A stretch of DNA of 64,000 nt, taken from contig JAIQFN010000012.1 of NCBI GenBank assembly GCA_020073265.1, positions 1-64,000 on the forward strand, given 5' to 3'. This document shows positions 45,601 through 62,752 of the stretch, piece by piece (the first letter of the stretch is position 1; each line of letters opens with the position of its first letter). This DNA comes from Terriglobia bacterium. Lineage in GTDB: Bacteria > Acidobacteriota > Terriglobia > Bryobacterales > Bryobacteraceae. The notes beneath the pieces are model-generated. The model did no database searches and was not told the DNA's origin. It saw nothing but the letters and a program-made list of their open reading frames with translations. Both the position numbers and the translations under genes were made by a program.

Positions 45601-46184
45601 GTATCGGTGGAATTTTCGTCGCGGCCGATGGACATGCCGGGATCCACGCGCCGGGGCTTCTCGAAGCTCTCCGCCTGGATGCCGTCGCTAGAAAGCGCTG
45701 CGTTGCGTGTCCAGATTCCGGCGCGAACCGCGTCGTTGTGAGCCGTGCCTGGGTTGTAGTAGTCGGCCTGCGTGGCCCACGAGATGAAGTCGACGATTCC
45801 CGCCGGCGAGTACAGTGCGGCTTCGTCCATGTCCTGGCTCCACAGCGGGCCAGTGTCCTGGGTATAGGCGTCGCCGGTGTTGTCGCGAAAATCGGTCCGA
45901 TTGGCGCCCTGCGTGAAGTGGACTACTAGATAGGCTTGCGGCGGAAGCAGGATCGAAGGCAGGTTACGAGCAGACGATCCGAGCGAACCATCCCGGCCGG
46001 CGACGATCCAGCCGGTCAGATCCACTGGTGCCGCCCCGGCGTTGAACAGTTCAACCCATTGATGGGTCTTGAGCGCATTGGAGTTGGCCGGATCGATGCG
46101 ATACAAGACTTCGTTGATCAGCGCTTGGCCGGATGCCAGAGACGACAGCGCAAGCGCAAGAAGCAGGCGCGACCCGTTAGCCAT
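42624..46184 (-). CDS. Secreted lamin-tail / clostripain (C11) peptidase fusion (1186 aa)
   Basis: Signal peptide, then a lamin-tail domain (about residues 20-150; 'LINEVLYRIDPANSNALKTHQWVELFNAG'). Next is a C11 clostripain-type peptidase: 'KKWTVMLYLNGANSLESYIFDNM', the catalytic His in 'IILSSHGNGW' (about residue 354) and catalytic Cys in 'LLAFDACLMGGIEVADQ' (about 398). The C-terminal half carries beta/Ig-like repeats, including a Big_1-type pair ('GVLSAPDFVDIGQQASITAVAVAGSNPFPGAKL'). It is probably a surface or secreted endopeptidase with Arg specificity typical of the family; the substrate is unknown. Confidence 0.85.
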   Translation of the reverse strand: MANGSRLLLALALSSLASGQALINEVLYRIDPANSNALKTHQWVELFNAGAAPVDLTGWIVAGRDGSLGSSARNLPSILLPPQAYLVVHFTQGANRTDFRDNTGDAYTQDTGPLWSQDMDEAALYSPAGIVDFISWATQADYYNPGTAHNDAVRAGIWTRNAALSSDGIQAESFEKPRRVDPGMSIGRDENSTDTDTTADFEPHGGVAALDNSPNRRNLDQLPFVFGPAPAASTVTPRAASPKKWTVMLYLNGANSLESYIFDNMVEISALGGSDNNVNFVAMFKGTKFRNGSAVRGRIDASEESDKVQLAAAPDDTIDAGAQDMGNPFVLQTFINWAKSNYPAQHYAIILSSHGNGWKRWGPDQTVPGTRAKGDYLYMGEFTTALAGQHFDLLAFDACLMGGIEVADQVRDFTDYFLASEELVPGRGFPYNTLRNALTLNPDISPRDLGSKIVDLFAARYQVSAGKWTLSLTDEKQLGALISQVDTWSAALRTGSGVFLGRDNPWDNVQVLIKFDRIASQVFGDTNFVDLYDLAKRINDDPQIPGCVKAPIPPILASISGPVVLAEQHSPGLNAHGLHIYFPTNRKRTGSFRADEDYDFPTTRQSDGNSRLAIYASNNDQLPLKAMDQEDHGDLNPRTEWPEPPSPNLMFVQHARWARFLERFYHPVADNRIVMATAPNGDTILPKPVGGGDCQNPMDEITAPLGSIITLSGAGSSDADQPGFQLARFIPPVPFVFPTYYFWDLDASVGCTSNCIQPFTVPPGSDAGAAANDNMDADRDIGNTTWDEKDASGPSVTRKCDTLDPIITTLIPWDDNHLQPFHRTLPDANYVHPQTDSHQSVIKCAPLPYTILIDEPQPTESANENQDLVGDLKAAPGTAGSANSLSMRRRLSPRDTSSGPSIPNYPLVVSTSAGSPPITASGTAIPPGSSATIYTDLSGSFSLQVRPTAPGPARITVKAPGGPTQTLSFTVGPAVQLTNVGITTPPGAQLPVNGTGTFTIKPSNNGQPAVNVPVHLLSVYGNVKFLNGTLWARGLGSELLTDGTGTAQFQLQGVSAGAEQIIVSVGAAFGPVNLTVTGTAPSAPTGVGVLSAPDFVDIGQQASITAVAVAGSNPFPGAKLVFEVVKGHLSFTGSSTAGQVTITTDATGQAKATFAANDPTPIQIKISVQATQLSTTVDIPVRLPVQ

Positions 46185-49156: not shown

Positions 49157-50779
49157 ATGTGGCAGCACAATTACACACCTCTTCATGGAAGTTTGTTTCA
49201 GTCCGCCGCTGTAGCCTCGTTGCCGGTCCTCACGCTGCTGCTTCTGTTGGGCGTGCTCCGCAAGCCGGCCTGGTTCTCGGCGCTGTCGGGACTCGCGGCC
49301 ACAGTTTTAGTGGCGCTGCTGCTCTACGGGATGCCGGTCACGCAGGCTTTTTCCGCGGCCACGTTCGGAGCCGCATTCGGTTTGTTCCCCATTGGGTGGA
49401 TCGTGATCGGCGCCGTGTTCCTCTACCGCATCACGATCGAGACCGGGAAGTTCGAAGTCATCAAGTATTCGCTCGGAAGCCTGACCAAGGATCGCGCGCT
49501 GCAGGCCTTGCTGATTGGGTTTGCTTTCGGAGCATTTCTGGAGGGAGCCGCGGGATTCGGAACGCCAGTGGCCGTGGCCGCAGCCATGCTGACCGGACTC
49601 GGCTTCTCGCCGTTCTACGCGGCGGCTTTGTGCCTGCTGGCCAACACGGCTCCGGTGGCGTTCGGGTCGATCGGCATCCCCGCTGTCACGCTGGCCGGCA
49701 TCACGAATTTACCGCTCGACCGGTTGAGCGCGGGCATTGGCCGGATTTGCGCGCCGCTGTCCGTGATCGTGCCCGGATACATCGTGGTGGTGATGAGCGG
49801 CTTCGGCGGCCTCGCGCGGGTCTTCCCGGCGGCGCTGGTGTGCGGCGTGTCATTCGCGGGCATGCAGTTCATCATTTCCAATTTCGTCGGCCCGCAGCTC
49901 ACCGATATCGTCGCGTCGCTGACTGCGATGGGGGCGCTGGTTCTGCTGTTCCTGGTCTGGAAACCGAAGAATGAGGACCGGCATGCGGAGCCGGCCGAGT
50001 CGGGCAAGACGGTCCACTATTCGGGCGGCCAGATCTTCCTGGCCTGGAGCCCTTATCTATTGCTGGTGGCGTGCGTCCTGCTGTGGGGTTGGAAGCCGAT
50101 GCAGGGGCCGTTGAATTCGGTGAGCATTCCAATCCAGTGGCCGGGCCTGCACAACCAGATCGCGCGCGTTCCTCCGGTGACCAACAAAATCTCGGCATAC
50201 GCGGCGGTCTTCAACTTGAACTGGCTGTCGGCGGCTGGAACGTCCTGCCTGATTGCCTGCTTTCTCTCGGCACTGGTGCTGCGGGTTTCGCCGAGTCGTT
50301 TCTTGAAAATTTTCGCGGACACCATGCGCCAGCTCGCGCTCGCTCTGGTTACGCTGGCTGCGGTGCTCGGCCTGGCCTACCTGATGAACTATTCCGGCGC
50401 CACCGGCACGCTGGGGTTGGCGTTCGCGGCCACCGGGGCATCGTTCCCGTTCTTCGGCGCGATTCTGGGCTGGCTGGGCGTGTTTCTTACCGGGTCGGAC
50501 ACCTCGTCGAATGCGCTGTTCGGCAACCTGCAAGTGATCACCGCCACGCGTCTGGGTCTTAACCCGGTGCTCATGGCGGCGGCTAACTCGAGCGGCGGCG
50601 TGATGGGAAAAATGATCAGCCTGTCGAGCTTGGCGGTGGCGGTGGCGGCCACTGGAATGAAGCCGGAAGAGGAAGCCATGTTGTTCCGCTTTACGCTGCG
50701 GCACAGCGTGTTCCTGGCTTGTCTGATCGGGCTGGTGGTGCTGTTTTATGCCTACGTGGCGCCGGGACTGCAGCCTTGA
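49157..50779 (+). CDS. lldP: L-lactate permease (LldP/GlcA family)
   Basis: A 540-residue protein with about 13 helices. 'LLIGFAFGAFLEGAAGFGTPVAVAAAMLTGLGFSPFYAAALCLLANTAPVAFGSIGIPAVTLA' is the family hallmark, along with 'GWLGVFLTGSDTSSNALFGNLQVITATRLGLNPVLMAAANSSGGVMGKMISLSSLAVAVAATG'. It imports lactate (and glycolate) by proton symport. No lactate dehydrogenase is adjacent. The outer-membrane barrel gene of the redox locus starts 62 bases downstream, so lactate-derived electrons could feed that system, but this is only suggestive. Confidence 0.93.
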   Translation: MWQHNYTPLHGSLFQSAAVASLPVLTLLLLLGVLRKPAWFSALSGLAATVLVALLLYGMPVTQAFSAATFGAAFGLFPIGWIVIGAVFLYRITIETGKFEVIKYSLGSLTKDRALQALLIGFAFGAFLEGAAGFGTPVAVAAAMLTGLGFSPFYAAALCLLANTAPVAFGSIGIPAVTLAGITNLPLDRLSAGIGRICAPLSVIVPGYIVVVMSGFGGLARVFPAALVCGVSFAGMQFIISNFVGPQLTDIVASLTAMGALVLLFLVWKPKNEDRHAEPAESGKTVHYSGGQIFLAWSPYLLLVACVLLWGWKPMQGPLNSVSIPIQWPGLHNQIARVPPVTNKISAYAAVFNLNWLSAAGTSCLIACFLSALVLRVSPSRFLKIFADTMRQLALALVTLAAVLGLAYLMNYSGATGTLGLAFAATGASFPFFGAILGWLGVFLTGSDTSSNALFGNLQVITATRLGLNPVLMAAANSSGGVMGKMISLSSLAVAVAATGMKPEEEAMLFRFTLRHSVFLACLIGLVVLFYAYVAPGLQP

Positions 50780-50841: not shown

Positions 50842-52947
50842 GTGCTGAGCGCGGCGCGAAGTCTTCTCCTGGCCCTTCTCGTGACCGGAGGAATCGCCGG
50901 ACAGAGCCAACGCATCCCGCGGCAAACCGCTCGCACCACCGCCGCCGTGGAAGGCATCGTGCGCACCGAGGCGGGACTCGGACTCGGCGGAGTCAGCGTC
51001 GTCCTCCAGAATCTTTCCACCGGCCGAAGCGTCACGACGTCGACGACGGGCGATGGCGTTTTCCGGTTTCTCAATCTGGCGCCCGGCCGCTATCAACTCA
51101 AGGCTACGCGCGACGGCTTCGAGGGGTTCGCGCGCGGCGAGATCGGACTCCAGGCCGGCGGCGTGTTTCCGGTTGAGTTCAACATGAAGGCTGTGCCGAG
51201 TGGAGTGGAAGGCGGCCGCGAGATTCCGCGTAAACCGGAGCTTGGGCCGAAGCCTCCGACGACTCCCGTTCAGCCGGGGCCATCCTCTCCGTATCGGAAC
51301 CTGCCGCAGGAGCCGCCGCCCGCCACCACCGGAGAACCGCGCCCGCTTGCGCCGCTGCCCACCGACAGTCAGCTCTTCGAAGTGATTCCAAACCGCTGGA
51401 ACTTTCCGTTCCCCACCGAATACCATCGCTACCCGCAGGGCGAGGTGCCCTTTGTCAAGGGACACTGGTACGACCCGTTCAATCGCAATAAGCTCAAGGG
51501 CGACTATCCGATCATCGGCAACCGCACCTTCTTCGACCTGACCTTGACCAGCGACACGTTCGTGGACGGTCGCCGTCTTCCGGTGCCGAGCGGATTGGGG
51601 TCGTCCAGTCCGGACAGCTCGCAGTTCTTCGGGCGCTTCGGCCAGTATTTCATGAGCGAGAACATCGCCATCTCGGCTACGCTGTTTCATGGCGACACAT
51701 CCTTCCGCCCCATCGACTGGCAGATCAGGTTTACGCCAGAGATCAACATCAACTATCTCAATGTGCAGGAAAACGGAATCGTGAACGTCGATGTGCGGAA
51801 AGGAACCACGCGGCTGGACACGCATGTCGGGCTACAGGAAGCATTTTTCGAAGCGAAGCTGAAAGACTTGAGCTCGAGCTACGATTTCGTCTCGGTCCGC
51901 GCGGGCATTCAATCGTTCAACAGCGATTTTCGCGGCTTCATTTTTTCCGACCAGGAGCCGGGCGTCCGCGTGTTCGGCAATTTCGACTCGAACCGCTACC
52001 AGTTCAACGCCGCCTACTTCGCCATGCTCGAGAAGGACACCAACAGCGGTTTGAACCGCTTGGAGTACCGCAACCAGCAGGTGTTCATCGCCAACCTGTA
52101 CCGTCAGGATTTCATCAAGCTGGGGTACACGATTCAGGCCAGCTTTCACTACAACAAGGACGATCCGTCCTTCCGATTCGACAACAACAATTTTCTGGCG
52201 CGGCCGGCGCCGATCGGCGTGGTGAAGCCGCATTCGATTCGCGCGTTTTACTACGGGCTCACCGGCGACGGACATATCGGGCGTCTGAACATCACGCATG
52301 CGTTCTATCAGGTGCTGGGTCACGACAATTTCAATGAGCTGGCGGGCCGGCGCGTGGACATCAACGCGCAGATGGCGGCGGCCGAGCTGTCGCTCGACAA
52401 GGACTGGCTGCGCTATCGCGTGTCTTTCTTCTATGCTTCCGGCGACAAGGACCCGAGGGATGGGACGGCCCGCGGCTTCGATACTATCTTCGACAACCCC
52501 AACTTCGGCGGAGGGTTTTTCAGCTTCTTTAATCGCGAAGGGATTCGTTTGACCGGGACCGGCGTAGCGCTGGTGAGTCCCGGGAGCCTGGTGCCGGACC
52601 TGCGCACCAGCAAGATCGAGGGACAGTCCAATTTCGTCAATCCGGGACTGTTCCTATACAATGCGGGGGTGGACATCGATGTCACGCCGAAGATCCGCGG
52701 CTTCGTGAACCTGAATCTGCTGCGCTTCGCGCGCACGGAGCCGCTCGAATTGCTGCTGTTTCAAAAGCCGATTCATTCCGGAATCGGCGCCGACTCGGGG
52801 ATCGGCGTATCGTACCGGCCGCCGCTTTCGGAAAACATTGTGATCACCGGTGGAGTGAGCGCGCTGCAGCCATTCCAGGGTTTCCGCGAGATCTCCACCA
52901 ATCGAACGCTATTCTCTGTGTTTACCAATGTCCGATTCCGTTTCTAA
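50842..52947 (+). CDS. Outer-membrane beta-barrel with carboxypeptidase-regulatory domain (701 aa)
   Basis: Signal peptide, then a CarboxypepD_reg-like beta sandwich (about 32-115; '[27 protein letters not shown]', '[18 protein letters not shown]') and a Pro-rich linker (about 120-170). The remaining roughly 520 residues alternate polar and aromatic/hydrophobic residues like a transmembrane barrel and end in '...VFTNVRFRF' with the C-terminal Phe of BAM substrates. There are no cysteines, so no haem and no MtrB-type CXXC. The gene overlaps the ten-heme cytochrome gene by 20 bases, which argues that the two products act together. Start GTG 50842. Confidence 0.7.
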
Positions 52948-55900
52948 GTACTTGCGGTTCGCCTGCGCCCTGTCCCTTGCGGCGGTCTGTGTGCTCATGT
53001 GCACCCTGCTGATGGCCCAGCAATCCGGCCGGACGCTGCTGGTTCAATCGCAAGACGAAGCCGACCACAAGAGCACCGGCTGCGTGGCCTGTCATGGCCA
53101 GACCGATTCGCCGTCCATGCACACCACCGGGACCGTGCGACTGGGCTGCACGGATTGCCACGGCGGAAAGGCCGACGTCCTGCCGCCCGCGGGAGCACAG
53201 AAAGGGTCCGCTTCTTACGAGCAGGCCAAGAAGCAGGCGCATCCCCAGCCGCGAATCGCGGATTTGTGGAAGAGTTCCGCCAATCCGGTGCGCCCCTACG
53301 CGCAGTGGCTCAAGGAAAGCAAGGAGTATATCCAGTTCGTCAACCCCGGCGATCTGCGCGTGGCCGACCAGACTTGCGGTTCGTCCGGCTGTCATGCGCG
53401 GGAAGTGGTGGCGGTTCGCACCAGCATGATGACGCACGGAGCTATGCTGTGGGAGGCGGCGCTCTACAACAACGGCGACTACCCGTACAAAGACGCGCGC
53501 TTCGGCGAGAGCTATTCGCCCGATGGCCTGCCTCAACGCGTGCAGACCTATCCGCCGCCATCGCAGGATCTGACGCGGACCAAGGGCGTTCTTCCGCATC
53601 TCGATCCGCTGGGACGCTGGGAAGTCTCGGAGCCGGGCAATATTCTTCGAGTGTTCGAACGCGGAGGCGGCCCGCGCGCCGAGATCGGAAATCCGAATCC
53701 GGAAGAAGATCCCGGCCGGCCGGACGACAAGTTGAGCGACCGCGGCCTCGGCACCGAGCTGCGCACCGACCCGGTCTTCATCGGTTTGCAAAAGACGCGC
53801 CTGCTCGACCCGATTCTCTCGCTGCCCGGCACGAACGATCATCCCGGCGACTATCGGGGCAGTGGTTGCACGGCCTGCCATGTGATTTACGCCAACGACC
53901 GCTCGCCCATCCATTCCGGCCCCTACGCCGCGTTCGGCAACCAGGCGCACAGCGCGCAGATCGATCCGACGATTCCGCACGACGAGCGGGGCCATCCTAT
54001 CAAGCACGAATTCACGCGCTCCATCCCAACCAGCCAATGCATTGTGTGCCACATTCATCCCGGCACCAACATGGTGGCGTCGTATCTCGGCTACATCTGG
54101 TGGGACAACGAAACCGATGGCGAGCACATGTACCCGCCCAAGCAGCACAACCCATCGGATGACGAGCGCTATCAGAGCTGGCTAGTTAATCCGGAGAGCG
54201 CGGCGGCCCGGGGACTGTGGAAGGATCTCTCATTTCTTGAGAAGGTTGGATCGCCAGAATTCAACCAACAGCTTAAGCACACGCAGTTCGCCGATTTCCA
54301 CGGTCACGGGTGGGTTTTCCGAGCTGTTTACAAGCGCGATCGCAAGGGCAACCTGCTGGATGCGATGAGCCACATCGTGCCGCCCGACGACCAAGACAAG
54401 TTCAAAAAAGCCGTGCAGCTTCGCGACATCCATCTCGACAAAGGCATGCACTGCGAGGATTGTCACTTCGCGCAGGACAACCACGGCAACGGCAATCTTT
54501 ACGGCGAGACACGCAACGCGGTGGAAGTGGATTGTGTGGATTGCCACGGCACGATTTCGAAGAAGGCGACGCTCAGGACTTCAGCGGCGGCCGCGCCTCC
54601 CGGCGGCACCGACATGTCGTTGCTGCGCACGCCCTGGGGAACGCGGCGGTTCTACTGGCAGGATGCCAAGCTTTACCAGCGATCCATGGTCGAAAAAGAC
54701 CGCGCGCCGTGGGAAGTGGTGCAGGTGGTGGACACGATCACGCCGGGCAATCCGCATTACAGCGAGAAATCGCGCGTCGCCAAGACGCTGCTGAAAGATG
54801 GGCAGACCTGGGGCGGGGCGCCGGCGGATGAATCCACGCTCGCACACGCCAACAGCCGCATGACCTGCTACACCTGCCACTCATCCTGGACCACCAGCTG
54901 CTTCGGTTGCCATCTGCCGATGGTCGCGAACAAGAAGCTGCCCATGCTGCACAACGAAGGCCTGACCACGCGCAACTATACTGCCTACAACTTTGAAGTG
55001 CTGCGCGACGACATCTACATGCTGGGGATCGACGGCACGGTGACCAAGCATCGCGTCGCGCCGACGCGCTCGACATGCGCGGTGGTGGTCAGCTCGCAGA
55101 ACGCGAATCGCGACTGGATCTACTACATGCAGCAGACCATCTCGGCTGAGGGGTTCAGCGGCTTCGGCTTCAGTCCTTACTATCCGCACACCGTGCGCGC
55201 CACCGAGACCAAGACGTGCACGGACTGCCATGTCTCGCGCGACGGCGACAACAATGCATGGATGGCGCAGATCCTGATGCAGGGAACCAACCTGGTGAAT
55301 TTCATGGGGCGGTACGTGTACGTCGCCGAGGGTTCCAAGGGGTACGACGCCGTCACGGTGGCCGAGCACGATGATCCGCCGGCTGTCTTCGGGAGCGACC
55401 TGCATAAGCTGGTTTATTCCGGCGACTACGCGAAGCTTCAGAAACATCACGGCGAGCTGGAGGAGGCCGACCACCACGCCGGCAATGTTCAGGATGTCCA
55501 GTTGCGCGGCGAATACCTGTATGCGGCTTTGGGCAAGGGCGGGTTCCGGATCTACGATGTGGCCAACATCGACAACAAGGATTTTTCCGAGAAGATGACC
55601 ACCGCGCCGGTGTCGCCGCTGGGGCAGCGCTTCTACGTCAAGACCAAAAACGCGACTGCGGTCGGGTCGCCGTCGACACTGGCGGTGGATCCGCTGCGCA
55701 CGCGCGTTCCCGCGAACGAAGAACAGCCTATCGCGCTGATGTACGGGTTCCTGTACGTGACCGATCTTGAAGAAGGCCTGGTGGTCATCGGCGATCCCAA
55801 CCTGAAGAGCAAGAGTCCGGGCGTGCTGACGTTGCTGGACGGCAATCCGGCCAACAATTTTCTCAAGCGCGCGACGACGTTCAATCCGAACGGCATCTTG

Positions 55901-56650
55901 AATGGCGCGCGACGCATCACCATCGCGGGGACGTACGCGTATATTCTGTGCAATCGCGGCCTGGTGGTGGTGAATATCGAGAATCCGCTGGCGCCGAAGG
56001 TGGAGTCGGAGATCGGCGCGCCGGAGCTGGTGGATCCCGAGGGGGTCGCGATCCAGTTCCGCTACGCGTTCGTGGTCGATAAGCAAGGGCTGAAGGTCTT
56101 GGATGTGACGTCGCTGGCGCATCCTCGGGTGGTGCCGGGCGCGACGGTGCCGCTAGAGGACGCGCGGAACATTTACGTAGCGCGAACTTATGCGTACGTG
56201 GCCGGTGGCAAGCAGGGTCTGCTGATCATCGACGTCGAGCGGCCCGAGCATCCACGCATCGAGCAGGCGTTCAATGCCGAAGGCGAGATCAACGACACGC
56301 GTGACGTGAAGCTGAGCATGACCGCCGCTAGCGCGTTCGCCTATCTGGCCGACGGCAAGAACGGTCTTAGAATCGTGCAGCTCTTCGCTCCGAACGACAC
56401 GCCGAACTACCTTGGCTTCAGCCCCAAGCCGACGCCGAAGCTGATCGCCACGTATCACACCAAGGGTCCGGCGCTGGCGGTGTCGAAGGGCATCGATCGC
56501 GACCGTGCGGTGGATGAAAGCGGCAATCAATTGGCGGTATTCAATCGCCGCGGATCGCGCCCGTTCAATCATCAGGAAGCCGAGCGGTTGTATTTGAAGA
56601 ACGGGCAACTATACACGGTGACCAACGATCCGCCTGGACCGGCCAAGTAA
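52928..56650 (+). CDS. Ten-heme cytochrome c with C-terminal LVIVD propeller (1240 aa)
   Basis: N-terminal signal/anchor (residues about 9-30). Nine CXXCH sites lie at residues 52, 74, 314, 371, 509, 536, 647, 658 and 764, and there is one CX4CH (CGSSGCH at 150), so up to ten haems. From about 780 to 1150 come some seven repeats of the type '[23 protein letters not shown]' and '[24 protein letters not shown]', the LVIVD beta-propeller family. The combination suggests a large extracytoplasmic electron carrier with a binding or docking propeller. Its stop is directly adjacent to the stop of the convergent ten-heme gene. Confidence 0.85.
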
Positions 56651-57970
56651 CTACTCGGTTAGCTGCTGAATGGTGCGCGGACCTGTGGCGGGCTTTTCTT
56701 TGGTCCAGTCGTGGTAGGTGTGGCATTCGAAGCATCGGGCTTCGGCGGCATCGCTACCTGAGTGGTGGCATTCGCGGCAGGACTGGACGCCCGGGATCAG
56801 GACGTCCGACGTCTCTTTGCTCGACATCGTTTTGCTGTGGCAGGACTCGCACGCGACCATGCGGTGCGCCTGGTGATCGAAGTTGGCGTGCGGCAGCCAG
56901 CGTGTAGTGAGGGTCGCCTTAGCCACTTCGGGCAAGGCATCGAATCCCGCCGGATAGTTGAGCGTGTGGCACTCCTTGCAGGCTTTGCGCCACAGCAGAA
57001 GTTGCGCGTCGGCCAGGCGCTGCTGGACCCACTCCTGAGCGTTGCGCGCCGGCGGCTGCGGCGGACGAGTGGGCAAGCGCTTGTCCGGCTCGTCCACCAG
57101 CGGGATCTCGGCTGGATGCGCGGCGATGTAGGCGGTGAGTTTCTGGACCACGAAATCGTAAACCACTTTCGGCTGTTTGTGCGGGACGGATTCGCTGAAG
57201 CGGCGGTCGAACTGGAGCGGATGGCAGGCCGAGCAATGCTTCTCGTAATTGACCGGTTCCATGTAGGAGCGGTCCGGCAAAGTGAATGACGCGGTGGTCG
57301 CAGTGACTTCGGCTGTTCCGAATGGCCAGGATTCGGTGAAGCCGGGCGGGCGATGGCAATCGGCGCATTTCAGTTGCGCCGGTCCGTGCGGACCGCGAAC
57401 CGGCCGCTTGGGATCGAGATGCACCTGATGATTGAACTTGATGGTCCCGGGATCCTGGTGGCCCGGGCGCAGCGCCAGGAATTCCGGATGCGTGCGATCG
57501 AAGCCTCGGATGTTAGCCACGAATTTGGGAGGCGCGTTCTTGTCTTTGGCAGCAAGATCGGCGTGGCATTGAGTGCAGGCTTCATCGCTGGTGCTGGCCA
57601 TACGGAGGAGACCCTTGTGTTCGACGTGGCAACTCGAACAAGACGGCGTGAAGGTCTGCTCGGTATGGTGCACGGGGCCATCGTGGCAGGCGAGACAGGC
57701 CTGGTCAGTGGCAGTACGCTGGAAACCGGCCTGAGCAACGTGGCAGGCGCTGCACTTTTTTCCGAGCAGGGCGTGGGAGTGCGCGAGCGGGCCCGCGTTG
57801 TACGGCTTGGGACTCCCCGCCAGCGCGTGCCAGCCGAGCCACGCCAGTCCGGCGAGCGTGAAAACGCCAGAGAGAATGCGCCGCCAGCGCGGGATGCCGT
57901 GCAGCGTCTTGAAGTAGTTCAGATTGATCCGCTGCGCCAGCTTTTTGGTGGTGCGTGTTCGTCCCGCCAT
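56651..57970 (-). CDS. Membrane-anchored ten-heme cytochrome c (439 aa)
   Basis: ATG 57970 gives one N-terminal membrane helix ('ILSGVFTLAGLAWLGWHAL'), then a periplasmic domain with ten CXXCH sites (CSACH, CLACH, CSSCH, CTQCH, CADCH, CSACH, CKECH, CESCH, CRECH, CFECH) and many distal histidines, as in cytochrome c3/c7- and NrfH-like proteins. It would take electrons from the b-type cytochrome encoded seven bases upstream and pass them into the periplasm. The in-frame region before 57970 lies inside that gene and is not part of this protein. Confidence 0.88.
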   Translation of the reverse strand: MAGRTRTTKKLAQRINLNYFKTLHGIPRWRRILSGVFTLAGLAWLGWHALAGSPKPYNAGPLAHSHALLGKKCSACHVAQAGFQRTATDQACLACHDGPVHHTEQTFTPSCSSCHVEHKGLLRMASTSDEACTQCHADLAAKDKNAPPKFVANIRGFDRTHPEFLALRPGHQDPGTIKFNHQVHLDPKRPVRGPHGPAQLKCADCHRPPGFTESWPFGTAEVTATTASFTLPDRSYMEPVNYEKHCSACHPLQFDRRFSESVPHKQPKVVYDFVVQKLTAYIAAHPAEIPLVDEPDKRLPTRPPQPPARNAQEWVQQRLADAQLLLWRKACKECHTLNYPAGFDALPEVAKATLTTRWLPHANFDHQAHRMVACESCHSKTMSSKETSDVLIPGVQSCRECHHSGSDAAEARCFECHTYHDWTKEKPATGPRTIQQLTE

Positions 57971-57977
57971 GGTGTCC

Positions 57978-58859
57978 CTAGTAGCGCAGCGCCATGATGG
58001 CGTGCACTCCTCCCAGAACCAGCAAGGCGATGGACAGCGGCACGTGCACCAGCAGCCAGCCGTGCAGCCAGCGGTAGATTCCAATCTGCCGGTTCATTTG
58101 CCGTTCCTCTTCGCAGATGTTTTCGAGATCGTCCAGCACGGCGTGCACCGGTGTGACGAGCAGTCTGCGAAGCGACTCGAAGACTTCGCGGGCGCGAGTG
58201 GCGTCGGCCAGCTCGGCGCGCGGCGCTTCGGGATCGGCCAGGTAGGGGCGAACTCTGCGCAGGTAGATGTCGCGGAAGCGGGCGCGGTCCTCCTGTTCGA
58301 TCTCGACCAGCGTGGTGACGGCCGCGGCCGGTTCGTCGGCGATGGCTTCGGTGTCCATCGGGCCGCAGACGCTCGAGACCAGCTTGTCGGCTTCCTCGCG
58401 AAGCTGAGCGCGGACGTGCGGGATCTCTTCGTAAATCGTTTCCATCGGGACGCGCTCGGTCATCAGGGTAGGTACGAAGTGCTGGATCAGCGCACCGACC
58501 CAGCCGCTCAGGATCACGATGAAGAACAGGATCATCAGCACCGCGGTCAGCGCGCCGCGAAACGCGAACCCGCCGTGATAGAGGATCAGCAGGAGGCTGA
58601 GCGTGCCGAGCCAGATGTGACCGCGCATCCAGGTCTGCGCGCGGCCGATGCGCCAGGTCGGGACTTTCTTGCGAGCGCCGATCAGGCCGGCGTACAGCAT
58701 GAGAGCGTAGCCGGTGATGCCAAAGGTCAGGCCGATGGCGCTGCCGCCGCGGGGGCCGGAGGGGGATTGGACGGCGTAGAGGATGTAGAGGATCGTGGAA
58801 ACCGCTGCTAGCACGGTGGCTGCGATCACCCAACCGCGGTGGGTTTTATCGATGCGCAT
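57978..58859 (-). CDS. b-type membrane cytochrome (293 aa)
   Basis: Five likely membrane helices: about 10-30, 43-62, 78-97, 102-124 and 268-290. Histidines sit at helix ends suited to haem ligation (81, 95, 127, 266, 272, 286), resembling the cytochrome b561 / NapC-partner type quinol-interacting subunits. Between helices 4 and 5 is an unusual hydrophilic insert of about 135 residues rich in Glu/Arg/Asp, probably cytoplasmic, which could dock the Fe-S/cNMP protein encoded upstream. No exact family name is claimed. Confidence 0.7.
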   Translation of the reverse strand: MRIDKTHRGWVIAATVLAAVSTILYILYAVQSPSGPRGGSAIGLTFGITGYALMLYAGLIGARKKVPTWRIGRAQTWMRGHIWLGTLSLLLILYHGGFAFRGALTAVLMILFFIVILSGWVGALIQHFVPTLMTERVPMETIYEEIPHVRAQLREEADKLVSSVCGPMDTEAIADEPAAAVTTLVEIEQEDRARFRDIYLRRVRPYLADPEAPRAELADATRAREVFESLRRLLVTPVHAVLDDLENICEEERQMNRQIGIYRWLHGWLLVHVPLSIALLVLGGVHAIMALRY

Positions 58860-58872
58860 AAAAGTCCACCTG

Positions 58873-58916
58873 GCGTTCACACGAGTGTGAACGCGGCACG
58901 CACGAGCGCGTGCGCC
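58873..58916. repeat. Two consecutive hairpins in the redox operon
   Basis: A perfect 22-base palindrome (58873-58894; arms GCGTTCACAC and GTGTGAACGC around GA) is followed directly by a second inverted repeat (GCACGC 58896-58901, GCGTGC 58908-58913). They fill the 60 bases between the Fe-S/cNMP gene and the b-cytochrome gene. The first arm shares GCGTTCACACGA with the palindrome at the operon promoter. They could be REP-like elements, operators, or a processing site that sets unequal subunit levels. Confidence 0.55.
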
Positions 58917-58919
58917 ACG

Positions 58920-61076
58920 TCATGTCAGCGATCTCCTGGTTTCGGTTTCGAGCGGCGTTCCGAGCCAGCGGAAAAATTCGTTCGGGTCCACGCGATGGCA
59001 GGCGTCGTGCGGGCAGGCGTAGACGCAGGTCGGCTCGGCGTGCTCGGTGCACAGGTCGCAGGAAGTGGCTTTCTGTTTGACCACTGCGATCTGGCGGCCC
59101 GGATTGGCTGGGTCGTCCTCGAGCACGTTGAACGGATGCAGATTGATGTTGCCGTACGGGCAATTCTTGGCGCACAGGCCGCAGCCGATGCACCAGTTCT
59201 CGATGATCACTTCGAGCGAATTGCGGCGGCGGATGGAGCCGACCGGACAGCCGACCATGCACAATGGGTCGCGGCAGTGCCGGCAGGACGTGGCCACCAG
59301 GTACTTGTCGAAGCGCTGGCCTTCACGGACCAGTCGCGTCACGCCCTCGTGGGCGTCGGCACAGGCTCGCACGCAGGCGTCGCAGCGCGTGCAACGCTCC
59401 AGATCCATCACCAGCAGGCTCTGCGCTTCCATGAGGCCCTGTGTCAGGAAGTCGTCGAGCGGCATGCTGGTTGCAGTGGCCAGGCGCTGCCGGTTTTGTT
59501 CCGTGCGCTCGTAGGCCAGCCGCTCCAGGTTCTGGCGGACATCCGGGAACTGCTCCACCATCTGATGGAACTCTTCGGCGTGGATGCGCACCAGTTCGAC
59601 GTGATCGAGCGCCGTGCAGGTAGCGGTGCGGCGGCCTTCGCCCAGGAGTCCGATTTCGCCGAAATATCCGCCGCGGCCGAGATACGCAAGCACCAGTTCG
59701 CCGCCCGGATGCGGCTCCGACACCTTCACGAAACCGAGACGAACCAGGTAGAAACTGTCGGCGATGTCGCCCTGCCGGCAAATCACGTCGCCCTTGGTGT
59801 GGCGAACCAGCTCCACCTTGTTTCGCAGCACATCGATGAACTCAGGCGTCAGCGACGCGAACATCGGCACGCTGCGCAGATGATCGTCGAGGGCGCGCTT
59901 GCGATAGTTGGCGTCGAGCTGAGCCTTGAGCGTCTTGTTGCGCTGGATGATGTCGAGGACGTTGCGCAGCATCTCGAACATCACGCAGTCGGTGGCCGCC
60001 CGTACCGTGGCCGAGCGCGGGTACAGGCTCATGCAGGTCATTTCGCCGAACAGATCGCCGGGGCCCAGCGTGGCGACGGGGTTGTCGTACGGCAGATCCA
60101 CGGGAGCATCGATGGGAATGCTGCGGCGAGCGCCTTCCTCCTCGCGGCGTTCCTGTTGCCGTCCCGCCAAACGGCTGGTCAATTTGCTGAAGAATCCGGT
60201 GGCGCCACCCTGCGTCTGCACGTGCGCGAGCGGCGTGGCAAGGAAGACCTGCGCCTGGCCCTCGAGAATGTAGAACGCTGTCGAACCATACTCGCCTTCG
60301 CGGCAGACGATCTCGCCCTTGCGGTAATGGCGGCGGACAACGGCGTTCTTGTTCAGCTCCAGGAACGTGCCCGAAACCTTCTGGAAGTAGGAGAGCTGCT
60401 GCAGCTCTTCGACGTCCACCGGCTCGCCCGGCAGGACGGTTTTCACCACGCTCTTGTTGGTGAGGGCGCCGGTGGGGCACGAGACCATGCACTCGCCGCA
60501 GGACACGCAGGAGGAATTGCCCATCGGCAGGTTGTAGTCGAAGGCGATGCCTGCCCAAAACCCCTTGCCGCGGCGGCCGAGCACATCGTTGTGGCGGATT
60601 TCGTCGCAGCCGCGGATGCAGCGGTCGCAGAGAATGCAGGCTTCGTGATCGACCGCGATGACGAGCGAGGAATTGTCCTGACCGCGCGGCGAGAGGCGCC
60701 GGGGAAAGCGCGGCTGCGTGATGCCTTCCAGGCGCGCCAGGGTCTCCAGCTCGCAGTCGTTGGATTGGCGCTGGCGGGCACAGGGGCTGGGATGATCGGC
60801 CATCAGCAGCTCGATGAGCGTTCGGCGAGCGCGCGTGACCTTCTCGGAATTCGTGGTCACCACCATCTTGTCCTCGGCCTGGCGCACGCACGCGGCGCTG
60901 AGGACGCGGCCGCCCGCCTCTACCACGCAAACTCGGCAGACGCCCACCGGAGTCTCGTTCTGCTGATGGCACAGCGTGGGGATCGGGATGCCGTGCATTC
61001 GGGCGGCGTCGAAGATGGTGGTGCCGGCCGGGACTGAGACTGCGGCGCCGTCGATGGTGAGGTGGACGTCGCTCAT
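58920..61076 (-). CDS. NuoG-N-like / double cNMP-binding / four-cluster ferredoxin fusion (718 aa)
   Basis: Residues 1-80 are a [2Fe-2S] domain (C36, C47, C50, C63). 95-108 resembles the NuoG His-Cys3 [4Fe-4S] loop, but the third ligand is missing (H95, C99, R102, C108). Two [4Fe-4S] motifs follow (C147/150/153/157 and C190/193/196/200), as in HoxU/NuoG N-termini. About 245-378 and 410-520 are two cyclic-nucleotide-binding domains, each with FGE and an R-x-A-T phosphate cassette; the first has a 45-residue insert. 560-690 holds four DmsB-like [4Fe-4S] motifs. The start overlaps the nuoEF stop by four bases. A gated electron wire from NADH dehydrogenase to the b-cytochrome is inferred. Confidence 0.82.
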   Translation of the reverse strand: MSDVHLTIDGAAVSVPAGTTIFDAARMHGIPIPTLCHQQNETPVGVCRVCVVEAGGRVLSAACVRQAEDKMVVTTNSEKVTRARRTLIELLMADHPSPCARQRQSNDCELETLARLEGITQPRFPRRLSPRGQDNSSLVIAVDHEACILCDRCIRGCDEIRHNDVLGRRGKGFWAGIAFDYNLPMGNSSCVSCGECMVSCPTGALTNKSVVKTVLPGEPVDVEELQQLSYFQKVSGTFLELNKNAVVRRHYRKGEIVCREGEYGSTAFYILEGQAQVFLATPLAHVQTQGGATGFFSKLTSRLAGRQQERREEEGARRSIPIDAPVDLPYDNPVATLGPGDLFGEMTCMSLYPRSATVRAATDCVMFEMLRNVLDIIQRNKTLKAQLDANYRKRALDDHLRSVPMFASLTPEFIDVLRNKVELVRHTKGDVICRQGDIADSFYLVRLGFVKVSEPHPGGELVLAYLGRGGYFGEIGLLGEGRRTATCTALDHVELVRIHAEEFHQMVEQFPDVRQNLERLAYERTEQNRQRLATATSMPLDDFLTQGLMEAQSLLVMDLERCTRCDACVRACADAHEGVTRLVREGQRFDKYLVATSCRHCRDPLCMVGCPVGSIRRRNSLEVIIENWCIGCGLCAKNCPYGNINLHPFNVLEDDPANPGRQIAVVKQKATSCDLCTEHAEPTCVYACPHDACHRVDPNEFFRWLGTPLETETRRSLT

Positions 61077-62752
61077 AGCGCCCTCTCGGGATGCATCGGA
61101 CAGACGCCTTCCGGACAGCGCTTGTCGTAAATGTGAGACTCGATCTCCGGGCGGAAGTGCTGCATCACGGAGCTTAACGGCGCGTGCGCGAATTGGCCTA
61201 GGCCGCAAATGGAAGCCAGCTTCAACGCTTCGGTGATGTCTTCGATCATCGGCAGATCAGCGGCAGAACCCTTTCCCTGCGTCCATCCGGTCAGGATGTC
61301 GACCAGTTTCTGCGATCCCATGCGGCATGGCACGCATTTCCCGCAGGACTCATTGCGGAAGAATTTCACCGCATTCAAAGCCATGTCGAGCATGCATCGG
61401 CCCTCGGCGCAGATCACGATAGCACCCGATCCTAGCATCGATCCGGCCGCAGCCAGGGATTTGAAGTCCAGGCGCACCTCGGCCATGGAGGCCGGCAGGT
61501 ATCCGGACGAAGGTCCCGACGGCGCGAAGGCCTTTAGCTTTCTGCCGCCCGTGATGCCGCCGGCCAGGTTGAAAATAACTTCCGACATCGGCAGGCCCAT
61601 GGGAATCTCGAAAATGCCCGGATTGCGAACGTCGCCGCTGATGCCGACGAACTTCAGTCCCGCCGCGCCGCCCTGGCCCTGCGCCTTGTACCAGTCCACG
61701 CCGTTGACCAGAATCTGCGGGACGTTGGCAAAAGTTTCGACGTTGTTGAGCGCGGTCGGCTTGTTGAAGACTCCGTGGGTCACCGGGAATGGCGGCTTGT
61801 TGCGCGGCTCGGCGCGTTTGCCTTCAATGGCCTCGATGAGAGCGCTCTCCTCGCCGCAGATATATCCGCCGGGACTGATGAACAGTTCCAGGTCGAACGC
61901 GAGACCGGAACCGGCCACGCTGGAGCCGAGCAGACCTTCCTGGTAACAGCGGTCGATCTCCTCGCGCAGCACGTGCTCGGGTCCTTCGTACTCGTGGCGC
62001 AGGTACAGGATGCCTTTCTGCGCCCCTGTTACCAGGCCGGCGAGAATCATGCCCTCGATCACCAGGTGCGGCAGGTTCTGCATGATGAAACGATCCTTGA
62101 TGGTGCCGGGTTCGCTCTCGTCGGCGTTGCAGACGACGTATTTCTCGGGACCGGGCGCCTTACGCACCGCTTCCCACTTGATTCCGGTGGGGAATCCGGC
62201 GCCGCCAAGTCCGCTCAGGCCGCTGGCTTTCAACTGCGCGATCACGCCGTCCCAGTCGCGGGTTTGGACGACCTTCCGAACGGCGCCATAGCGCTCCGCA
62301 TCGTGATAGGGATCCGAAGCCAGGCCATTGACTCGCGCGTCGGCAGGCATGTGTGGGAGGCTGCTGCCGCCCAGCGCCGTCAGCACCAGCGCCTCGGCTT
62401 GGGCGGGGGTTACGTTGCGGTAGATGTGGTCATTGATCGAAACCGCCGGACCGCCGTCGCACTGGCCCAGGCAGGACACTTCGCCGATTTTCAGATCGCT
62501 TTCGCTCATGCCCTGGAAGCGCTGCTTCAGCCCCACGCGCAGATCGTCGGCGCCGCACAGGTGGCAGGACATGTCCGCGCACACCCGTAGCGTCACCTTG
62601 GGCGGAGGCGCGAGATGGAAGTGAGGATAGAAGTCGGCCACACCGTGGATGCGGTAGAGCGGAACCTCGGTGCGCTTGGAGAGCGCCTCCAGTTGCTCGC
62701 CCGGCAGGTAGCCGTATTGTTCTTGGATCGCTCTCAGGTCGTCGAAAAGCAA
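61073..62752 (-). CDS. NuoE-NuoF fusion, NADH-oxidising flavoprotein (559 aa)
   Basis: Residues 1-125 are a thioredoxin-like NuoE domain with [2Fe-2S] ligands C58-x4-C63 and C94-x3-C98. About 160-559 is NuoF: FMN/NADH site 'GLGGAGFPTGIKWEAV' and 'YVVCNADESEPGTIKDR' (181-221), 'GGYICGEESALIEAIEGKRAEPRNKPPFP', and [4Fe-4S] ligands C470, C473, C476 and C516. It ends in a short 'CPEGVC' tail. The fusion resembles HoxF/FdsB diaphorases more than separate complex I subunits. The TTG 62752 start is the first after an in-frame stop and has GAGG upstream. It is the first gene of the redox operon. Confidence 0.9.
   Translation of the reverse strand: MLFDDLRAIQEQYGYLPGEQLEALSKRTEVPLYRIHGVADFYPHFHLAPPPKVTLRVCADMSCHLCGADDLRVGLKQRFQGMSESDLKIGEVSCLGQCDGGPAVSINDHIYRNVTPAQAEALVLTALGGSSLPHMPADARVNGLASDPYHDAERYGAVRKVVQTRDWDGVIAQLKASGLSGLGGAGFPTGIKWEAVRKAPGPEKYVVCNADESEPGTIKDRFIMQNLPHLVIEGMILAGLVTGAQKGILYLRHEYEGPEHVLREEIDRCYQEGLLGSSVAGSGLAFDLELFISPGGYICGEESALIEAIEGKRAEPRNKPPFPVTHGVFNKPTALNNVETFANVPQILVNGVDWYKAQGQGGAAGLKFVGISGDVRNPGIFEIPMGLPMSEVIFNLAGGITGGRKLKAFAPSGPSSGYLPASMAEVRLDFKSLAAAGSMLGSGAIVICAEGRCMLDMALNAVKFFRNESCGKCVPCRMGSQKLVDILTGWTQGKGSAADLPMIEDITEALKLASICGLGQFAHAPLSSVMQHFRPEIESHIYDKRCPEGVCPMHPERAL

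What the first reader, a model, noticed from the sequence alone, without database searches (positions are those of the whole stretch)
50842..56650. Cysteine-free barrel translationally coupled to a ten-heme LVIVD cytochrome
A 701-residue barrel ending in Phe overlaps by 20 bases the start of a 1240-residue cytochrome with ten haem sites and a beta-propeller. This resembles porin-cytochrome conduits in logic, but neither protein looks like MtrA/B/C or the Geobacter Omb/Oma/Omc sets. The CarboxypepD_reg domain on the barrel and the LVIVD propeller on the cytochrome are unusual additions.
Basis: partly seen in the sequence, partly recalled or inferred. Interest (0 to 1): 0.7.

Follow-up and report, generated by a model that had tools for sequence, protein, structure and literature searches.

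The report
Barrel paired with propeller-bearing ten-haem cytochrome
An outer-membrane barrel and a very large ten-haem cytochrome nearly always travel together in soil and water bacteria of many phyla and most likely carry electrons between the cell and its surroundings, a widespread but almost unstudied way for bacteria to "breathe" outside the cell.

Summary
In detail: a 701-aa barrel ORF (50842-52947) overlaps by 20 bases a 1240-aa cytochrome ORF (52928-56650) with nine CXXCH plus one CX4CH site and an LVIVD propeller. The pair is conserved. Of 297 Acidobacteriota genomes searched, 32 have the barrel and all 32 the cytochrome; one of the other 265 has a partial cytochrome. Relatives bear nine phylum labels and include four named Planctomycetota isolates. 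All ten haem sites and ten other histidines are near-invariant in 110 homologues. The barrel is predicted as 18-stranded and AlgE-like. In 4 of 93 barrels the N-terminal extension is itself a tetrahaem cytochrome, which favours an electron role. Neighbouring genes suggest an NAD(P)H-fed inner-membrane module with cyclic-nucleotide-binding domains. Best reading: a porin-cytochrome conduit of a distinct type, unproven biochemically. CarboxypepD_reg and lack of cysteine are not family traits. A 2026 cave metagenome paper (PMC13264449) probably noted this type in passing.

The parts
50842..52947 (+). AlgE-like outer-membrane barrel, 701 aa; N-terminal signal-like segment, CarboxypepD_reg domain (about 50947-51186), 18-strand core (about 51508-52944), C-terminal Phe
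   Evidence: CarboxypepD_reg in only 8 of 40 relatives
52928..56650 (+). Decahaem LVIVD cytochrome, 1240 aa, N-terminal hydrophobic (signal-like) segment without lipobox
   Evidence: single compact predicted fold, pTM 0.86
53081..55231 (+). Ten haem sites (residues 52, 74, 150, 314, 371, 509, 536, 647, 658, 764)
   Evidence: near-invariant in 110 homologues
55307..56500 (+). LVIVD beta-propeller (residues about 794-1191)
   Evidence: Z 20.0, 273 residues, rmsd 2.2, archaeal surface-layer YVTN propeller 1l0q
56651..58084 (-). Decahaem cytochrome, ORF 477 aa, 10 CXXCH; real start probably residue 39 (about 57970), giving 439 aa; hydrophobic anchor near N-terminus (by eye)
   Evidence: Met 39 nearly invariant in 28 homologues
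57978..58880 (-). Membrane b-type cytochrome, 300 aa, invariant His 88, 102, 279, 293
   Evidence: family found in all 32 barrel genomes of 297
58920..61208 (-). HoxU-like [2Fe-2S]/[4Fe-4S] protein with cyclic-nucleotide-binding domains, 762 aa
   Evidence: CNB in 38 of 38 homologues
61073..62752 (-). NuoE-NuoF fusion (NADH dehydrogenase flavin module), 559 aa

Best explanation
The two genes encode the outer-membrane end of a distinct type of porin-cytochrome electron conduit. The barrel (18 strands, AlgE-like fold) sits in the outer membrane; the ten-haem cytochrome docks on or partly into it, its haems probably all bis-histidine and so built for electron relay rather than for substrate binding; the propeller serves as a docking or capping domain. 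Electrons most likely come from NAD(P)H in the cytoplasm through the convergent operon next door: NuoEF flavin module, iron-sulphur protein with cyclic-nucleotide-binding domains, two-haem membrane cytochrome b, decahaem cytochrome, then the pair, then an extracellular acceptor such as iron or manganese oxide or humic matter. Shown: sequences, conservation, co-occurrence, neighbourhood, tetrahaem-barrel fusions. Predicted by model: barrel and propeller folds. Inferred: haem ligation, order and direction of electron flow, contact between the two proteins, the acceptor.
For: Co-occurrence: in 297 Acidobacteriota genomes the barrel is in 32, all 32 have the cytochrome; of the 265 others one (G296) has a partial copy near a contig start, and two (G188, G222) match in the propeller only (Fisher test). 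Linkage: of 68 named-genome loci with at least 1.5 kb upstream, 62 have the barrel within 1.5 kb upstream on the same strand by script and L129 is a 63rd on inspection; of four genomes without a near barrel that I checked whole or as held (L108, L113, L151, L156), three have it elsewhere. Haem sites and ten extra His near-invariant in 110 homologues. Barrel predicted as 18-stranded, AlgE Z 29.9 over 362 residues. Natural fusions: 4 of 93 barrels carry a four-haem domain at the N-terminus, class III cytochrome c by Pfam. The membrane cytochrome b family is in 32 of 32 barrel genomes and 31 of 265 others. The CNB/iron-sulphur protein has an NAD(P)H-type input part in 22 of 38: Fer2_4 (HoxU-like) in 13, Pyr_redox_3 in 9. 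Partial similarity of the haem region to Geobacter ExtM in 23 of 23 and ExtN in 22 of 23 members.
Against: I found no biochemical or genetic test of it. The barrel's nearest fold is an exporter, and an 18-strand pore is narrow for a 700-residue haem region, so how electrons cross is unexplained. Many carriers are presumably aerobes not known for extracellular respiration (recalled, not tested). Inner-module genes are not always beside the pair: at least one in 48 of 108 loci, many loci being short. The b-type family also occurs in 31 of 265 genomes without the barrel (5 at 100 bits or more). 16 of 38 CNB proteins match neither NAD(P)H-type part at E 1e-5. In L113's genome, as held, no barrel was found; in L108, L151 and L156 it lies away from the cytochrome, in L139 on the opposite strand. 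His 458 and 850 (101 of 110) and 675 (95 of 110) are also well kept, so 'ten' His depends on where the line is drawn.
Confidence: 0.62

Rival explanations
1. The cytochrome is a large periplasmic redox enzyme or electron store, and the barrel is a substrate or product channel of the AlgE/OprD type rather than an electron scaffold.
For: Best fold matches of the barrel are AlgE and OprD-type channels. Haem density is enzyme-like (10 haems in about 717 residues). Profile matches to eight-haem nitrite reductase (E 1.9e-5, best stretch 53 residues) and, not significantly, NrfA, and partial match to ExtM of a selenite/tellurite-linked Geobacter cluster.
Against: Ten haems with ten near-invariant extra His leave no obvious open site. 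Barrel-tetrahaem fusions put haems on the barrel itself. Matches to enzymes are short.
Confidence: 0.22
2. Same conduit, opposite direction: electrons are taken up from outside (for example Fe(II), reduced humics or a partner cell) and delivered to NAD(P)+ or the quinone pool.
For: The inner module has NADH-dehydrogenase-type subunits that could in principle run either way. Nitrospirota- and Binatota-labelled carriers.
Against: Uphill reduction of NAD+ from such donors would need energy input that no gene seen here supplies (inference).
Confidence: 0.12
3. The barrel chiefly secretes or anchors the cytochrome at the surface, the propeller acting as a lid on the barrel, in the manner of a BtuG-type propeller on a BtuB barrel.
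For: Structures of B12-transporter surface lipoproteins appear among the propeller matches (8bmx_D, 8bn0, 8bai_B); LVIVD repeats were described in cell-surface proteins (PMC2447325, search listing and start of abstract only).
Against: Propellers of many kinds match as well or better; no lipobox on the window cytochrome and a lipobox-like site in only 5 of 107 homologues.
Confidence: 0.04

Closest known systems
'Group 1' porin-cytochrome complexes of Sterkfontein cave MAGs (PMC13264449, 2026; sections 11 and 18 and passages read)
   Same: 11 clusters with a large decahaem cytochrome gene (4-5 kb by their text) beside a porin of about 20 strands, 7 of 11 with a ferredoxin-NADP reductase gene nearby; PCC-bearing MAGs of the study included Acidobacteriota and Planctomycetota. 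The Pyr_redox domain found here on 9 of 38 CNB/iron-sulphur proteins fits that annotation.
   Different: No sequences could be compared (supplements not readable), and which phyla make up group 1 is in a figure I could not see, so identity is probable, not shown. The sections read mention no propeller, AlgE fold, cyclic-nucleotide domains, GlcG partner, tetrahaem-barrel fusion or cross-phylum family. The window cytochrome gene is 3.7 kb, a little below their range.
Geobacter Pcc/Omb-Oma-Omc and Ext conduits (PMC4245776, results parts 1 and 2 of 3; PMC6148476 and PMC5877670, passages)
   Same: Porin with 18-22 predicted strands beside multihaem cytochromes; ExtB predicted with 18; partial ExtM/ExtN similarity of the haem region.
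   Different: Pcc periplasmic cytochromes are small and haem-dense (400 aa the largest in that paper); here one 1240-aa protein with a propeller. Score to ExtM 74.9 bits against a cut-off of 800.
MtrCAB / PioAB / MtoAB
   Same: Barrel plus ten-haem cytochrome logic.
   Different: No match of the barrel to MtrB_PioB, none in the own genome; 18 predicted strands rather than 26 (26 for MtrB from PMC12133095, passages); cytochrome nearly four times the 333 aa of MtrA.
AlgE / Alginate_exp porins
   Same: Predicted fold, 18 strands, Pfam match at E 0.01 in 4 of 40 relatives.
   Different: Partnered with a decahaem cytochrome; about 13% identity; window protein below the Pfam cut-off (13.5 against 25.2 bits).
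Verrucomicrobial porin-multihaem clusters (PMC5615132 and PMC6344600, passages)
   Same: Porin beside multihaem cytochromes in Verrucomicrobia such as Opitutus, proposed for electron transfer to humic matter.
   Different: Described in 2017 with at least 20 strands and an eight-haem periplasmic cytochrome; not comparable by sequence here.

Membership tests
MtrCAB/PioAB | Porin of the MtrB_PioB family | tested here: not met
   No PF11854 match listed for the window barrel at E 0.1 or for any of 40 barrels at E 0.01; none in own genome at E 0.001
MtrCAB/PioAB | MtrA/DmsE-type decahaem cytochrome | tested here: not met
   TIGR03508 E 0.047, 13.1 bits against cut-off 192.2
MtrCAB/PioAB | OmcA/MtrC-type outer cytochrome | tested here: not met
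   Window: MtrC/MtrF domain PF22113 19.3 bits against 30. Family: PF22113 in 6 of 23 members at E 0.01 (best 5.1e-6, whether over cut-off not shown); TIGR03507 in 1 of 23, E 0.0075
Porin-cytochrome conduit (broad, Pcc sense) | Outer-membrane porin gene adjacent to a multihaem c-cytochrome gene | tested here: met
Porin-cytochrome conduit (broad, Pcc sense) | Porin of 18-22 strands | tested here: met
   18 core strands by my count in the predicted model; range from PMC4245776
Porin-cytochrome conduit (broad, Pcc sense) | Small haem-dense periplasmic cytochrome able to thread the pore | tested here: not met
   1240 aa, about 72 residues per haem over the haem region
[quoted passage not shown]
   needs biochemistry or genetics
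Geobacter Omb/Oma/Omc by homology | Sequence relation to OmbB, OmaB or OmcB | tested here: inconclusive
   no match under these names in the scans; whether the libraries hold such models was not checked
Geobacter Ext (ExtM/ExtN) | Score above the curated ExtM or ExtN cut-off | tested here: not met
   74.9 of 800 and 31.4 of 200 bits; but partial match in 23 and 22 of 23 members
Alginate_exp (PF13372) | Pfam gathering score | tested here: not met
   13.5 against 25.2 bits; 4 of 40 relatives match at E 0.01, best 9.7e-9
AlgE-like fold | 18-stranded barrel superposable on AlgE | tested here: met
   Z 29.9, 362 residues, rmsd 3.0; fold only, no function implied
LVIVD repeat proteins | LVIVD repeats above Pfam cut-off | tested here: met
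   83.5 against 20.2 bits; matched in 23 of 23 members

The most novel reading that the evidence does not exclude
A separate, complete type of extracellular electron transfer system, common in Acidobacteriota, Planctomycetota, Verrucomicrobiota and others: NAD(P)H-fed, switched by cyclic nucleotides (CNB domains) and in some lineages by phosphothreonine binding (FHA domain), crossing the outer membrane through an AlgE-type barrel with one very large decahaem-propeller protein instead of the slim rod used by Mtr and Pcc, and letting soil bacteria regarded as aerobic heterotrophs discharge electrons outside the cell.
Probability: 0.35. Interest if true: 0.8.

Novelty: new variant of a known kind. 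Interest (0 to 1): 0.62.

Why it matters
If the reading is right, extracellular electron transfer is far more widespread in ordinary soil and freshwater bacteria than the Geobacter and Shewanella paradigm suggests. Named isolates carry both genes and could be tested directly: Roseiconus nitratireducens, Aporhodopirellula aestuarii and Planctomycetes bacterium Pan216 with the two side by side, Limnoglobus roseus with the barrel elsewhere on the chromosome. It would also show an outer-membrane crossing not based on a haem rod inside a wide barrel, and a link between second-messenger signalling and electron export.

Tried and rejected
Chance neighbours: rejected by the co-occurrence test and by linkage in genomes of several phyla.

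CX4CH as a spurious motif: rejected, since 52 of 110 relatives have CX2CH at the same place.

CarboxypepD_reg as a functional core: rejected; 8 of 40 relatives, and the N-terminal extension is otherwise variable.

Upstream lactate permease (49157-50779) as part of the system: its cluster was seen near the pair only in two loci of the same genus (L045, L079) and the window; not pursued.

MtrB-type porin or MtrA/MtrC cytochrome: not supported for the window proteins, though PF22113 matches 6 of 23 relatives weakly. PDB sequence search with the barrel profile gave nothing up to E 1; with the cytochrome profile eight-haem nitrite reductases and, at E 0.2 or worse, a cytochrome c7-like protein and NrfA. 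MtrB did not appear among the 50 rows listed for the barrel, which excludes nothing.

A prediction of the barrel-cytochrome complex and co-variation between the two proteins were not run.

Literature: LVIVD with multiheme cytochrome 0 papers, LVIVD with cytochrome 2 papers, unrelated by title; LVIVD alone 19 papers, listing only; other searches. In these searches of open-access papers I found no family-level description; PMC13264449 is the probable earlier sighting. PMC3669403 (passages) reports acidobacterial sequences among MtrA/MtrC-type decahaem cytochromes of peat soil; relation to this family not tested.

Loci L103, L134, L144 and L149 were lost to the simple ORF picker but are counted. 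The GlcG threshold was strict (1e-60) with a three-row profile, so 15 of 32 is a lower bound. That searches used the same 297 genomes is inferred from identical numbers and handles; the unmatched genomes are mostly not listed.
Full report
WHAT IS THERE. Two overlapping genes on the + strand: a 701-aa barrel protein at 50842-52947 and a 1240-aa cytochrome at 52928-56650, overlapping by 20 bases. The cytochrome has nine CXXCH sites and one CX4CH site, residues 52 to 764, and LVIVD repeats. Convergent with it, the two stop codons abutting at 56650/56651, lies a four-gene leftward run: a decahaem cytochrome, a membrane b-type protein, an iron-sulphur protein with cyclic-nucleotide-binding (CNB) domains, and a NuoE-NuoF fusion.

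IS IT REAL. The barrel was sought in 297 Acidobacteriota genomes and found in 32. The cytochrome profile over 297 genomes, the same ones as far as handles show, matched 35, two of them (G188, G222) only in the propeller. All 32 barrel genomes have the cytochrome. The one remaining, G296, has a partial copy (from about residue 473, in two pieces, a stop inside one) near a contig start. Fisher's test gives p about 4e-42 without the two propeller-only genomes and 7e-40 with them. Among the window's relatives the cytochrome is in 12 of 61 genomes, its own included, one of these (G023) propeller-only. In a tree of 81 sequences they bear nine phylum labels, with 11 label changes against 36.1 in shuffles. 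Titles of MAGs may be wrong, but four records are named isolates. Of 68 of the 80 loci with at least 1.5 kb upstream, 62 have the barrel within 1.5 kb upstream on the same strand by script, and L129 is a 63rd on inspection. Of the other five, L139 has it on the opposite strand; the genomes behind L108, L151 (Limnoglobus roseus) and L156 have it elsewhere, and only that behind L113 shows none as held.

ANATOMY OF THE CYTOCHROME. In 110 homologues (four of them duplicates) every haem Cys and His is conserved in 107 to 110 sequences, the shortfall being gaps at the N-terminus. Ten further His (65, 105, 356, 360, 377, 460, 502, 519, 640, 754) are kept in 107 to 110; the next are 458 and 850 (101) and 675 (95). 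Ten haems with ten spare near-invariant His suggest bis-His ligation throughout, hence electron relay; this is inference. The third site is CX4CH in 57 and CX2CH in 52 of the 110. The model of residues 36-1235 is one compact body (mean pLDDT 82.4, pTM 0.86). Residues about 794-1191 form a propeller (Z 20.0 to 1l0q, 273 residues). About 72 residues per haem over the haem region sets it apart from MtrA (25.1 residues per haem as stated in PMC7399161, section 18 read). The haem region matches part of Geobacter ExtM in 23 of 23 and ExtN in 22 of 23 members, far below cut-off in the window protein. A hydrophobic N-terminal segment is present in 104 of 107 members with enough sequence, a lipobox-like site in 5.

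ANATOMY OF THE BARREL. The model has 18 strands in residues about 229-700 (my count; mean pLDDT 79.5). AlgE is the best match by Foldseek (E 5.2e-16) and VIA-align (Z 29.9, 362 residues, 13% identity). All 40 aligned barrels end in Phe or Tyr (21 and 19). The N-terminal extension varies: CarboxypepD_reg in 8 of 40, Ig-like Big_13 in 3. In 4 of 93 distinct barrels (L058, L066, L071, L102) it carries four CXXCH sites and matches class III cytochrome c above the Pfam cut-off (33.3 to 37.3 bits against 22.9). A natural fusion of a tetrahaem cytochrome to this barrel is the best sequence evidence that the barrel handles electrons.

THE REST OF THE PATHWAY. Around the cytochrome (108 loci without the four duplicates, many short; 100-bit floor for named loci) are found a tandem GlcG/HbpS-like protein in 56, which in 45 of the 53 loci that also have a called barrel lies within 700 bases of it; the CNB/iron-sulphur protein in 38; the decahaem partner family (FHAcyt) in 35; the b-type protein in 24; NuoEF in 12; at least one of the last four in 48. 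In 297 genomes the b-type family at E 1e-10 is in all 32 barrel genomes and 31 of the other 265; at 100 bits or more, 30 of 32 and 5 of 265. The strict GlcG search gives 15 of 32 and 1 of 265, that one (G346) being a 75% complete genome. The window's genome keeps its GlcG tandem protein on another contig (C13). The b-type protein has four invariant His in two pairs 14 apart (88/102, 279/293; 19 sequences), as expected of two b haems (recalled rule). The CNB protein has CNB domains in 38 of 38 members; its N-terminal part differs: Fer2_4 (HoxU/NuoG-like) in 13, Pyr_redox_3 (FAD, NAD(P)H type) in 9, neither at E 1e-5 in the other 16. The first two point to NAD(P)H. FHA is on 8 of 28 of the decahaem partners, not on the window's.

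MECHANISM. The most economical reading is NAD(P)H, flavin, iron-sulphur clusters, b haems, anchored decahaem, barrel-bound decahaem-propeller protein, outside. Shown are the genes, their conservation, co-occurrence and fusions. The order, direction, contact and acceptor are inferred. The main gap is how a large haem region and a narrow barrel join electrically; the tetrahaem fusions suggest that haems sit at the periplasmic mouth, and the propeller may dock or cap.

COMPARISON WITH WHAT IS KNOWN. It works like a porin-cytochrome conduit, but the window proteins fail the tested sequence criteria for Mtr and the small-cytochrome criterion for Pcc (PMC4245776, results parts 1 and 2 of 3). ExtB is predicted with 18 strands (PMC6148476, passages), so 18 is within the known range. 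PMC5615132 and PMC6344600 (passages) report other porin-multihaem clusters in Verrucomicrobia. PMC7399161 (passages and one section) reported MtrB- and ExtB/E-type complexes in Holophaga as, to its authors' knowledge, the first likely one in Acidobacteria. PMC13264449 (passages and sections 11 and 18) describes a first group of 11 complexes with a large decahaem cytochrome beside a porin of about 20 strands, 7 with a ferredoxin-NADP reductase nearby. This probably is the same family: size, haem number and the Pyr_redox domain fit. I could not compare sequences. Hence 'new variant of a known kind', not 'categorically new'.

VERDICT.

Noticed in passing
L058:6990-9305, L066:10403-12763, L071:4690-7065, L102:5695-8016: Barrels whose N-terminal extension is a four-haem class III cytochrome domain: natural cytochrome-barrel fusions in four acidobacterial loci.
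   Followed up: yes
56648-56653: The stop codons of two convergent genes (cytochrome, +; decahaem cytochrome, -) abut with no base between them (TAA / TAG).
   Followed up: partly
58920-61208: Iron-sulphur protein with cyclic-nucleotide-binding domains inserted between a HoxU-like part and a ferredoxin-like part; the N-terminal part is exchanged for an FAD/NAD(P)H domain in some relatives.
   Followed up: partly
L060:5400-7160 and G000:C13:37631-39046: Tandem GlcG/HbpS-like (haem-binding type) protein next to the barrel in many genomes, unlinked in the window's own genome; role unknown.
   Followed up: partly
L060:3555-5354, L119:3614-5428: FHA domain and a multihaem cytochrome in one protein, suggesting phosphothreonine-dependent control of a cytochrome.
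   Followed up: partly
42624-46184 (-): 1186-aa protein that on reading looks like a lamin-tail domain followed by a clostripain-like peptidase and Ig-like repeats (recognised by eye, no search run).
   Followed up: no
L113, L151, L156, L108: Cytochrome homologues in Planctomycetota-titled records without a barrel close by; three of the four genomes have the barrel elsewhere, the one behind L113 shows none as held.
   Followed up: yes
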